A stretch of 35,331 nt of DNA from Phycisphaerales bacterium. Its GTDB lineage: Bacteria; Planctomycetota; Phycisphaerae; UBA1845; Fen-1342. How positions within the stretch are numbered: position 1 is the stretch's first letter; every line of letters starts with the position of its first letter. The DNA lies in contig PMMM01000100.1 in the NCBI GenBank assembly GCA_003162245.1, positions 1 to 35,331 on the forward strand, written 5' to 3'. Below, in pieces: positions 3,805 to 5,989 of this stretch. Made by a program: the position numbers and the translations under genes. Below the pieces are notes generated by a model. It was given only the letters and a program-made list of their open reading frames with translations. It made no database searches and had not been told where the DNA came from.

Positions 3805-3820
3805 CAGTGGGCTCCGTTGC

Positions 3821-3856
3821 TCAAAGCTCTCAGCTATCAGCTCTCAGCTTTCAGCC
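3821..3856. repeat. Left 36-bp heptad inverted repeat of cassette
   Basis: Read on the minus strand this is a run of 7-bp units (GGCTGAA, AGCTGAG, AGCTGAT, AGCTGAG, AGCTTTG). It matches the repeat at 4742-4777 in inverted orientation at 32 of 36 positions. It supplies the TGA stop (3844-3846) of the four-helix-bundle gene and ends 16 bases before the pckA ATG. Confidence 0.85.
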
Positions 3857-4248
3857 AGAGAGCTCCGGCGCACGTGGCGACGGTGGTCATCATCCTGTGG
3901 GCTTAGTGTGTCGATCAGCGCCGCCAACATCCGTTTGATTTCGATGACGGCTTCATGGTTCGCCTGGTAGTGGTCGTCAGCCAGGAACTTGAGGTCGCGT
4001 GCCAGCAACAGGAAGTACTCCAACTCGCAAGCGGACCCCATGGCAATGTAGGTCGATCGCGCGAATTCCCTGTCCGTCTGGCGACCGCAACCTTCCGCCA
4101 GGTTGGCCGGTATCGAATAGGCAGCACGCCGAAGCTGACTCGTCAAGCCATATATTTCACGGCGCGGGAATGACTCAGTAGCGGCGTAAACGCTCAGCGC
4201 TAGCTGGTGTCCTTTCTGCCAAACCTTCAAGTTCCGAAAGTCCTGCAT
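3844..4248 (-). CDS. Four-helix-bundle protein (S23/IVP family)
   Basis: The protein has 134 residues. The sequence opens FRNLKVWQKGHQLALSVY and continues FPRREIYGLTSQLRRAAYSI, then PANLAEGCGR and ACELEYFLLLARDL. These are the hallmarks of the S23 / 23S rRNA intervening-sequence protein family, also related to the Avd protein of diversity-generating retroelements. Members are about 120 residues and form a four-helix bundle; Avd is pentameric and binds nucleic acid, while the function of the free-standing members is unknown. The ATG at 4248 has GAGG 7 bases upstream. The last residues and the TGA come from the flanking heptad repeat. The gene sits in an inverted-repeat cassette rather than in rRNA. 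The family call is firm; the role is unknown. Confidence 0.9.
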   Translation of the reverse strand: MQDFRNLKVWQKGHQLALSVYAATESFPRREIYGLTSQLRRAAYSIPANLAEGCGRQTDREFARSTYIAMGSACELEYFLLLARDLKFLADDHYQANHEAVIEIKRMLAALIDTLSPQDDDHRRHVRRSSLAES

Positions 4249-4308
4249 CTCCCAGCCTCGGGTTCGTTGACTTCCGCATAACGGACGAGCAGCGAGCTAG
4301 CCTTCGGC

Positions 4309-4677
4309 CTAGTCCTCCTCGTCGTCGTCGCGTCGATTCAGATCCGCCTCTCCCGGCAGGTCGCGGTACGTAAGAAACTTGGCCTCGAGCGCCGCAGCGG
4401 CGTTCAGAACCATGCTTCGAAAATTGCTCTTATTGGTCAGCGTTGCGTTTGAAAACGCGAACTTCACTTGTTGATCGATCGCTGTCCCTGCGAGATCGGG
4501 ATTACCCGTCGGGGCCCGAAGCTCAACGGCAAGGGCCTGCAAGAAATCCAGGTACTCCTGTTGGCGATCTTGAGGGTAGTTCGTTGTTGTGCCCCATGAA
4601 CTCCACGGCCCGAACCGCTCTCGGATTCTCCCAAAAACGAATTTGCGCAGCTCGTGGTTCCATTTCGTTCGCGGCAT
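4309..4677 (-). CDS. Hypothetical protein in the cassette
   Basis: I do not recognise this protein. I chose the ATG at 4677 because a GGAG lies 8 bases upstream, giving 122 residues; an in-frame ATG at 4737 would add 20 residues but has a weaker ribosome site. The sequence starts MPRTKWNHELRKFVFGRIRE, is rich in basic and aromatic residues early on (FGPWSSWGTT), and ends in an acidic tail (NRRDDDEED). No signal peptide, membrane segment or Cys/His cluster is visible, so it is likely a small soluble cytosolic protein. It lies 60 bases upstream of the four-helix-bundle gene in the same direction, inside the same inverted repeats, so the two may be co-expressed and may work together. GC is lower than in the flanking genes, which fits acquisition from elsewhere. 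Confidence 0.65.
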   Translation of the reverse strand: MPRTKWNHELRKFVFGRIRERFGPWSSWGTTTNYPQDRQQEYLDFLQALAVELRAPTGNPDLAGTAIDQQVKFAFSNATLTNKSNFRSMVLNAAAALEAKFLTYRDLPGEADLNRRDDDEED

Positions 4678-4741
4678 GGTCAGTTCTCCAAGCACGTCCA
4701 CCTTCACGACCCAGGGAAAAAGTGTAGTTGCGTCCATCTCT

Positions 4742-4777
4742 GGCTGAAAGCTGATAGCTGATAGCTGACAGCTCTCA
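4742..4777. repeat. Right 36-bp heptad inverted repeat of cassette
   Basis: The plus strand reads as heptamers GGCTGAA, AGCTGAT, AGCTGAT, AGCTGAC, AGCTCTC plus A. It is the inverted partner of 3821-3856 (32/36 identical). The final three bases form the stop codon of the aminotransferase on the minus strand. Because the period is 7, the successive TGA triplets fall in all three reading frames. Confidence 0.85.
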
Positions 4778-5989
4778 CCAGTCTCTGACCAGCTTCCGGT
4801 TCCCGATGTACAGCTCGTTCGGGGCGTCGGGGTCGAGGACCCATTTCATGCGCTCGATGCCCTCGATGACGTCCTTGATCGTGCCGCAGTAGCTGATGCG
4901 CAGGTAGCCCTCGAGGCCGAACTCGATGCCGGGCATGACCAGCACGCGGACCTTGTCGAGCAGGCGCTGGGCGAGCTTCTGCGAGCTCTTGCCGTAGGCG
5001 CTGAAGTCGGCGAAGCAGTAGAACGTGCCGTCGGGCTTGTAGACCTTGACGCCGGGGAAGGTCTTGAGGCGGTCGATGAGCACGTTGCGGTTGTTCTCGA
5101 GGGTCATCCGGAGGCTCTCGACGCTGGACTGGACGCCGTTGAGGGCCCCCACCGCGGCGTACTGGCAGAGAGCGGAGGGGCCGGAGGTCTGGTGGCTCTG
5201 GATGTTGGTCATGACCTTCATGATCTGCTTGTTGGCGACGGCCCAGCCAATGCGGAAGCCGGTCATGGCGTACTGCTTCGAGACGCCGTTGACGACGATG
5301 AGCTTGGAGTTCTCGGAGAGGTCCTTGGCGAAACGGTAGCAGTTAATGGGCTTGCGGCCATCGAAGATGAGGCGGTGGTAGATGTCGTCCATGATGAGCC
5401 AGAGGTCGCGTTTCTCGCAGAACTCGACGATCTCGGCGATGAACTGCTCGGAGTACATGGCGCCGGTGGGGTTGTTGGGGCTGTTGATGATGACGGCGCG
5501 GGTGTACGAGCCGACCTTCTGCTCGATGTCCTGGAGGCGCGGGTAGAACGTGCCATCCTCGGCGTACACGGGCACGCCGAGGGCGCCGCAGAGCTTGGCC
5601 ATCTCAGGGTAGCTGACCCAGTACGGGGCGGGGTAAACGACCTCTTCCTGGGGGTTCAGGATGGCCTGGAGGGCGACCATGATGGACTGCTTGGCGCCGC
5701 CGGAGCAGATGACGTTCTCGGGCTCGACGTGGCGGTCGTAGAATTCCTCGGTGTAGCGGATCACGGCTTTCTTGAGGGCCGGGATGCCGTCGGCGGGCGT
5801 GTAGCGGATCTCTCCGCTGTTGAGCAGGGCGGACGCGGTGACGAGGGCATCGATGGGCGGCTTGGTCTTGGGCTCGCCGCCGCCGAGGTGGATGACGGGC
5901 TCGCCCTTGGCCCGCAGGATGGCCGCCGTCTCGTTGAGCTTCAGCGTGGCGGACTCGCTGATGGATCGACCAATCTGGCTGAGACTCAT
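4775..5989 (-). CDS. Class I aminotransferase, aspartate aminotransferase type
   Basis: The ATG at 5989 is chosen because AAGGA lies 9 bases upstream and the protein then begins MSLSQIGRSISESATLKLNE, as in bacterial Ib-type aspartate aminotransferases. It has 404 residues, the usual length. PLP-enzyme motifs are present: SGGAKQSI (phosphate binding), NSPNNPTGAMYS (Asn for the PLP ring), MDDIYH, the Schiff-base lysine in NGVSKQYAMTGFRIGW near 237, and a C-terminal GYLRISY with the carboxylate-binding Arg. It would interconvert aspartate/2-oxoglutarate and oxaloacetate/glutamate (EC 2.6.1.1), though other amino donors are possible. It is followed by the repeat cassette and then pckA, which uses oxaloacetate. 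The TGA stop is part of the right repeat of the cassette. Confidence 0.9.
   Translation of the reverse strand: MSLSQIGRSISESATLKLNETAAILRAKGEPVIHLGGGEPKTKPPIDALVTASALLNSGEIRYTPADGIPALKKAVIRYTEEFYDRHVEPENVICSGGAKQSIMVALQAILNPQEEVVYPAPYWVSYPEMAKLCGALGVPVYAEDGTFYPRLQDIEQKVGSYTRAVIINSPNNPTGAMYSEQFIAEIVEFCEKRDLWLIMDDIYHRLIFDGRKPINCYRFAKDLSENSKLIVVNGVSKQYAMTGFRIGWAVANKQIMKVMTNIQSHQTSGPSALCQYAAVGALNGVQSSVESLRMTLENNRNVLIDRLKTFPGVKVYKPDGTFYCFADFSAYGKSSQKLAQRLLDKVRVLVMPGIEFGLEGYLRISYCGTIKDVIEGIERMKWVLDPDAPNELYIGNRKLVRDW

What the first reader, a model, noticed from the sequence alone, without database searches (positions are those of the whole stretch)
3821..4777. Inverted heptad-repeat cassette carrying a four-helix-bundle gene and an unknown gene
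Two 36-bp repeats at 3821-3856 and 4742-4777 are inverted copies (32/36 identical), each built from AGCTGAN-type heptamers. They enclose a lower-GC segment with an S23/IVP-family gene and an unrecognised gene, but no transposase. The segment fits exactly between an aminotransferase stop codon and the pckA leader. S23 proteins are known from rRNA intervening sequences and, as Avd, from diversity-generating retroelements; a stand-alone unit with its own terminal repeats could be a non-autonomous or novel mobile element in which the four-helix bundle acts on nucleic acid. The repeats and genes are seen; mobility is inferred.
Basis: partly seen in the sequence, partly recalled or inferred. Interest (0 to 1): 0.72.

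Follow-up and report, generated by a model that had tools for sequence, protein, structure and literature searches.

The report
S23 gene bracketed by cognate heptad arrays
This 957-bp insert is one copy of a widespread, overlooked bacterial genetic element in which the gene for a small ring-forming protein (S23) sits between two mirror-image arrays of about five 7- or 8-letter repeats that change together with the protein; relatives of it even lie inside other genes, in a second reading frame, without breaking them.

Summary
In detail: two inverted heptad arrays (five GCT motifs each) bracket an S23/PF05635 gene and an orphan ORF between an aminotransferase gene and pckA. It is not peculiar to this locus. 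Of 109 ordinary S23 genes examined in relatives and other phyla, 100 lie between inverted arrays of 7- or 8-mers, against 7 of 197 control pairs. The repeat unit differs between elements but tracks the S23 sequence (Mantel p<=0.0005, also across genomes and sites). Matching solo arrays are scattered through the host genome (about 39 loci) and nearly absent from genomes without S23. Sites lacking S23 exist. In 17 relatives the element lies inside dnaE2 or Eco57I-methylase genes as an in-frame insertion, S23 overprinted always in the same second frame and the host frame open throughout. Best reading: a selfish S23 element, of which rRNA intervening sequences are the rRNA-resident members, related to its solo arrays as a RAYT is to REPs; the S23 pentamer probably recognises the array. 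Binding and the transfer reaction are inferred.

The parts
3818..3861 (-). Left (S23-downstream) arm: inverted, outward-reading heptad array, GGCTGAA AGCTGAG AGCTGAT AGCTGAG AGCT, five GCT motifs; contains the S23 stop codon
3844..4248 (-). S23 / four-helix-bundle protein gene (PF05635, TIGR02436), 134 aa; relative of the pentamer XCC0516 (PDB 2GSC, E 2.5e-17)
   Evidence: only PF05635 gene in the genome
4309..4737 (-). 142-aa orphan ORF, extra cargo between S23 and the right arm; third-position GC 0.65 like S23; start codon abuts the array
   Evidence: no homologue
4737..4780 (+). Right (S23-upstream) arm: GGCTGAA AGCTGAT AGCTGAT AGCTGAC AGCT, five GCT motifs; contains the aminotransferase stop codon
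2152..3804 (-). pckA (ATP-dependent PEP carboxykinase), left neighbour of the insertion
4775..5989 (-). Class I/II aminotransferase gene, right neighbour (start at 5989 inferred from relatives)

Best explanation
The cassette is an 'S23 element': a selfish or horizontally spread unit made of an S23 gene and two inverted arrays of about five 7-mers that are the cognate recognition sites of that S23 protein. Shown by sequence: the architecture is near-universal for ordinary S23 genes; the array unit is private to the element and varies with the S23 protein; arrays of the same unit are scattered solo and as inverted pairs through S23-bearing genomes; sites lacking S23 exist; elements also occur in frame inside protein genes with S23 overprinted in one fixed second frame. 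Inferred: the S23 homopentamer (as in 2GSC) binds the array, probably as a single strand or hairpin, with roughly one repeat per protomer; this binding drives copying or retention of arrays and of the S23 unit, with cellular replication or repair enzymes doing the strand transfer. The 23S rRNA intervening sequences would be the members of this family that landed in rRNA. The window copy came from outside, carrying one extra orphan ORF, into an insertion-prone junction between an aminotransferase gene and pckA.
For: Flanking arrays: 100 of 109 ordinary S23 loci (adding the five GTDB loci that it left out), inverted 81/95 versus direct 5/95 and control pairs 7/197; periods matched 7-7 or 8-8 in 60 of 61 two-sided cases versus 10 of 201 control windows with any array. 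Other phyla and named plasmids: Chloroflexi, Bacteroidota, Acidobacteriota, Fibrobacteria, Cyanobacteria, Azospirillum, Gemmatirosa. Protein-array co-variation: Mantel r=0.38 across genomes and r=0.20, p<=0.0005 for pairs in different genomes and different sites, while elements in one genome are hardly more alike than distant pairs (0.106 vs 0.091). The nearest relative of the window S23 (Chloroflexi, 68%) has the same TCAGCNN unit. Solo arrays: 80 GCTGA hits in the host with 0 for the reversed pattern; 28 of 47 S23-bearing versus 2 of 14 S23-less genomes (p=0.005). Copy number: five motifs in 18 of 37 own solo arrays, mode 4-5 in S23 arms. Sites lacking S23. Overprinting: 11/11 dnaE2 site-1 insertions a multiple of 3, host frame open, same phase; 17 of 17 in-gene versus 3 of 79 other loci.
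Against: No binding, expression or movement has been seen. No catalytic partner was found: reverse transcriptase is absent from the host and several array-rich genomes and Y1 transposase from two of them. S23 copies within one genome are mostly far apart in sequence, and S23s at one site mostly form one clade, so recent transposition is not shown and much of the distribution is vertical. G001 has 68 GCTGA-array hits but its only S23 has a different unit. Some arrays have many more than five copies. The link between five repeats and the pentamer is a coincidence of numbers until tested.
Confidence: 0.6

Rival explanations
1. S23 is a regulator, not a mobile-element protein: the pentamer wraps RNA carrying the array (as TRAP wraps trinucleotide repeats) and controls its own and neighbouring transcripts; arrays spread by other means and were kept as operators.
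For: Arrays sit at gene ends and between operon genes; about five repeats matches a pentamer; S23s at one site are long-resident clades; the transcript of the window segment folds better than shuffles, z=-3.9, with the arms paired.
Against: Does not explain why the S23 gene itself is nearly always bracketed, the sites lacking S23, the cross-phylum spread with the same unit, or elements overprinted inside unrelated host genes.
Confidence: 0.2
2. An mRNA version of the rRNA intervening sequence: the inverted arms pair in the transcript and RNase III cuts the S23 segment out.
For: Coxiella's rRNA IVS carries S23, a 28-bp terminal inverted repeat and GACAGAT heptamers and is cut by RNase III (PMC4990558); arms pair in the fold.
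Against: In 17 in-gene cases the host frame stays open through the element, which would be unnecessary if the segment were removed; cutting without ligation would destroy the mRNA.
Confidence: 0.1
3. The arrays are ordinary low-complexity tandem repeats that arise by slippage; their place beside S23 is incidental.
For: Heptamer arrays without any reported S23 link are described in Xanthomonas, Nostoc and Beggiatoaceae (PMC4692102, PMC4679880).
Against: 100 of 109 S23 loci versus 3-5% of controls, inverted only; tight copy number; unit tracks the protein; none in 100 kb of S23-less G024 versus 6 and 27 in two S23-bearing genomes.
Confidence: 0.03
4. A non-autonomous element moved in trans by a transposase or reverse transcriptase that recognises the arrays, with S23 as an accessory, as Avd is for diversity-generating retroelements.
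For: S23 is related to Avd (NF033474 1.1e-5; phrog_3206 6e-8); REP/RAYT systems look similar.
Against: RVT_1 not found in G000, G003, G010, G014, G045, G048, G060; Y1_Tnp not found in G010 and G048, all array-rich; the array unit tracks S23.
Confidence: 0.12

Closest known systems
23S rRNA intervening sequences (IVS) with an S23 ORF (Coxiella, Leptospira)
   Same: S23 gene, terminal inverted repeats, lower GC; Coxiella's IVS even has tandem GACAGAT heptamers upstream of S23 (PMC4990558)
   Different: Here the element lies between or inside protein genes, not in rRNA; arrays on both sides with element-specific units and genome-wide solo copies; S23 keeps an open reading frame
REP/RAYT systems (REPINs, REPtrons)
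   Same: A gene bracketed by inverted copies of a short repeat that is dispersed solo and as inverted pairs in the same genome; repeat and protein co-vary
   Different: No HUH/Y1 transposase; the repeat is a 7- or 8-mer array of about five units, not a GTAG-type palindrome; the unit differs between elements of one genome
Rickettsial palindromic elements (from general knowledge)
   Same: Selfish DNA inserted in frame in protein genes
   Different: The S23 elements carry a complete protein gene in a second frame with a fixed phase
Avd of diversity-generating retroelements
   Same: Distant S23-fold relative
   Different: No reverse transcriptase in the genome at this sensitivity; far below the Avd model cut-off
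Heptamer arrays of Xanthomonas (GGGAATC) and Nostoc (GGGGATT)
   Same: About 180 dispersed heptamer arrays per Xanthomonas genome, many in convergent inverted pairs (PMC4692102); X. campestris has the S23 protein XCC0516
   Different: No S23 link is made in that paper; whether XCC0516 is bracketed by GGGAATC could not be tested here

Membership tests
S23 / PF05635 protein family | PF05635 match over the gathering score | tested here: met
   126 bits versus cut-off 33.8; TIGR02436 123 bits versus 24
S23 rRNA intervening sequence (IVS) | inserted in a helix of 23S (or 16S) rRNA | tested here: not met
   lies between aminotransferase and pckA genes; no rRNA match in the region
S23 rRNA intervening sequence (IVS) | S23 ORF with terminal inverted repeats that can pair | tested here: met
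S23 rRNA intervening sequence (IVS) | excised by RNase III | not testable with these tools
   needs RNA
REP/RAYT system | gene bracketed by inverted copies of a dispersed short repeat | tested here: met
REP/RAYT system | HUH (Y1) transposase encoded by the bracketed gene | tested here: not met
   bracketed genes are S23 and an orphan; Y1_Tnp not found in array-rich G010 and G048
REP/RAYT system | co-variation of repeat and protein | tested here: met
   Mantel tests
Diversity-generating retroelement (Avd) | Avd model cut-off | tested here: not met
   NF033474 25.7 bits versus cut-off 80
Diversity-generating retroelement (Avd) | reverse transcriptase in the locus or genome | tested here: not met
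   RVT_1 not found in G000
MITE / composite transposon | several near-identical copies with the same ends and a target-site duplication | tested here: inconclusive
   solo arrays common but no second S23 cassette in the genome; no clear duplication seen beside the arms

The most novel reading that the evidence does not exclude
S23 proteins and their cognate arrays of about five repeats form a bacteria-wide class of selfish element without a known nuclease: rRNA IVSs, dispersed 7/8-mer arrays in many bacteria and in-gene overprinted S23s are one system. The elements persist inside protein genes because a second reading frame through the element stays open, so the host protein simply gains a linker.
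Probability: 0.4. Interest if true: 0.9.

Novelty: new variant of a known kind. Interest (0 to 1): 0.76.

Why it matters
S23 ('four helix bundle protein') is a common bacterial family, solved as a pentamer in 2006, with no known function, and dispersed heptamer arrays were reported in several bacteria without explanation. Pairing the two gives S23 a testable ligand, places the long-known rRNA intervening sequences inside a larger family, and offers a likely source for many unexplained simple-repeat arrays. A protein gene nested in a second frame inside an in-frame insertion, repeated at unrelated host-gene sites with the same phase, would be an unusual way for selfish DNA to persist in coding sequence.

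Tried and rejected
The orphan ORF was searched in Pfam, NCBIfam, PHROGs, PADLOC, PDB, 60 relatives, GTDB contigs, viral contigs, phages and plasmids without a credible hit; a single-sequence AlphaFold model was poor (pLDDT 50) and was not searched further. Reverse transcriptase and Y1 transposase as obligatory partners were rejected from their absence in array-rich genomes. The idea that all S23 are alike was rejected: divergent sets (for example EKL.VYQ..VDFAD..FPRGY.FL.DQLNRA) lack matching inverted arms in all ten cases examined. Rfam gave only matches far below gathering scores. Testing XCC0516 in Xanthomonas was not possible: the genome search could not be centred there and plasmids hold no close copy. 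A first null for the arms (left flank of one locus against right flank of another) was inflated by shared units and was replaced. In one search the last 12 residues of the first query were typed without a source, so that row is not used.

Full report
WHAT IS THERE. The two arrays, the S23 gene and the orphan ORF are as described. The arms are 44 nt, 89% complementary, at 3818-3861 and 4737-4780. Both read outwards and have five GCT motifs spaced by 7 nt; they are the only period-7 arrays in the window. The right arm holds the aminotransferase stop codon and the left arm holds the S23 stop codon. The S23 ORF is a solid PF05635/TIGR02436 member and the only one in the genome. The 142-aa ORF has no relative in any collection searched. 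Both ORFs have third-position GC of 0.65-0.69 against 0.92-0.94 in the neighbours, so the segment looks foreign.

THE SITE. At the same aminotransferase-pckA junction the spacer is 2 bp in G002, 40 bp in G003 and 137 bp in G010. In G001 (same genus, neighbours 91-95% identical) and G011 it holds an unrelated ORF6N-domain gene. So the segment is absent from relatives and the junction accepts different inserts. The other inserts do not have these ends, so 'same ends, different cargo' is not met.

THE PATTERN IS GENERAL. PF05635 is present in 47 of 61 genomes of the window's relatives, up to 12 copies each. I read 96 loci there, 13 from GTDB contigs and 10 from named plasmids. Most S23 genes lie between inverted arrays of a 7- or 8-mer, but the unit differs: GGGATTNA, GAGATCGA, GGGACGAA, GTGGGAAN, GTGATAAG, AACAAGGT, TCAGCNN, TTAGCNN and so on. 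One search counts 100 of 104 ordinary S23 loci at an arm score of at least 28; it left out five GTDB loci that scored below that, so the fair figure is 100 of 109. The same score is reached by 7 of 197 control window pairs, and S23 flanks compared in direct orientation reach it in 5 of 95. Two-sided arrays have equal period in 60 of 61 cases. Ten S23s of divergent subfamilies lack matching inverted arms, an internal negative control.

PROTEIN AND ARRAY CO-VARY. S23 identity correlates with array similarity across genomes (r=0.38). It still does when pairs at the same insertion site are removed (r=0.20, no permutation of 2000 as high). Different elements within one genome are hardly more alike in array (0.106) than distant S23s (0.091), so the unit belongs to the element, not to the genome. 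The window's nearest S23, in a Chloroflexi genome (68%), has the same TCAGCNN unit, and its next relatives in other families have TCAGCNN, TTAGCNN or similar.

SOLO ARRAYS. The own genome has about 39 further GCTGA-array loci, 80 pattern hits against 0 for the reversed pattern. Copy number is sharply peaked: 18 of 37 arrays have exactly five motifs. S23 arms peak at four to five, although the detection threshold would admit fewer. The counts per genome follow S23: 28 of 47 S23-bearing against 2 of 14 S23-less genomes have any GCTGA array. All seven genomes with a GTGGGAAN-type S23 have such arrays, though in two of them the counts could be the arms alone. In 100-kb samples, S23-less G024 has none and G013 has 27, many of the units of its own S23 elements. 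Solo inverted pairs also occur, and array insertions lie in frame inside a protein-kinase gene of the host. G001 is an exception: many GCTGA arrays, no S23 of that type.

OVERPRINTING. Eleven genera carry an S23 element at one position of dnaE2, the error-prone DNA polymerase (NF004225: upstream piece matches 216-560, downstream piece 572-806). In all eleven the insert is a multiple of three, the dnaE2 frame has no stop through the whole element, and S23 lies in the same second frame. G006 is a twelfth case. Two genomes carry a second S23 element elsewhere in the same dnaE2 gene, and three carry one just before the DPACG(S/C)G motif of an Eco57I-type methylase. All 17 have the host frame open and the same phase; among 79 other S23s only 3 have that frame open. 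By the S23 tree these are at least three independent arrivals. A caveat: an element that broke its host gene would be harder to recognise as in-gene, so 17 of 17 may be biased. The dnaE2 site lacks S23 in the host itself and in about ten relatives. In G009, which has no S23, a short in-frame array (GGGATCA x3) remains at that very site, which looks like a scar.

HOW IT MOST LIKELY WORKS. XCC0516, the solved S23, is a homopentamer of four-helix bundles (PMC4990558 citing Lin 2006). A pentamer facing an array of about five repeats, whose sequence changes with the protein, suggests that each protomer contacts one repeat, as in ring proteins that wrap repeat-bearing RNA; this is inference. If S23 also promotes annealing or copying of its arrays during replication or repair, the arrays and the S23 unit would spread without an encoded nuclease. 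Reverse transcriptase and Y1 transposase are each missing from some array-rich genomes. S23s at a given site mostly form one clade, so movement is rare and most copies are inherited while their arrays turn over on both sides together.

COMPARISON. The Coxiella rRNA IVS has an S23 ORF, terminal inverted repeats and tandem heptamers (PMC4990558), so IVSs are probably the rRNA-resident members of this family. The window element is not an IVS in the strict sense, since it is not in rRNA. The relation of bracketed gene to dispersed repeat resembles REP/RAYT, but the defining transposase is missing. Reported heptamer arrays in Xanthomonas, with many convergent pairs (PMC4692102), fit the model and make a direct prediction for XCC0516 that I could not test. 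I found no paper in the open library that joins S23 to such arrays in general or describes overprinted S23s; subscription literature was not searchable.

VERDICT. Observation confirmed; interpretation partly supported and considerably widened. Architecture and co-variation are well shown; recognition by S23 is likely; active mobility remains inferred.

Noticed in passing
L079 (G001) and L080 (G011), aminotransferase-pckA junction: The same junction holds an ORF6N-domain gene. A palindrome like GGTCRCAAWTTGYGACC occurs inside the gene (coding SLRSQIVTL) and related ones in the spacer; G010 keeps only spacer palindromes. Possibly another protein-repeat pairing.
   Followed up: partly
L043:545-3067 (-), own genome: A Ser/Thr kinase gene carries two in-frame insertions made of GCTGA arrays without S23.
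   Followed up: partly
L206 (Pseudanabaena plasmid) and L210 (Anabaena sp. 90 plasmid): S23 elements with arrays lie between cas6 and cas4 in two cyanobacteria; another lies between nrdB and nrdA in Nostoc (L208).
   Followed up: no
L156 (G009), dnaE2: A genome without S23 has an in-frame three-copy GGGATCA array at the dnaE2 site where relatives carry S23, perhaps a scar.
   Followed up: partly
own-genome contigs C21, C29, C77, C103, C104, C110, C146, C198, C214, C216, C236, C240, C255, C260: About 14 of 39 GCTGA-array loci lie within about 400 bp of a contig end, so the assembly tends to break there; several arrays are embedded in a longer interspersed repeat (gatgaatact...ccgcgcggac...).
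   Followed up: no
L138, L139, L142-L144, L146-L148, L150, L151: Divergent PF05635 subfamilies lack matching inverted arms and may have another function.
   Followed up: partly
L036, L115, L121, L122, L125, L136, L140, L152: S23 elements recur between a conserved gene pair whose downstream member begins MGLFKSKEERR; its function was not examined.
   Followed up: no
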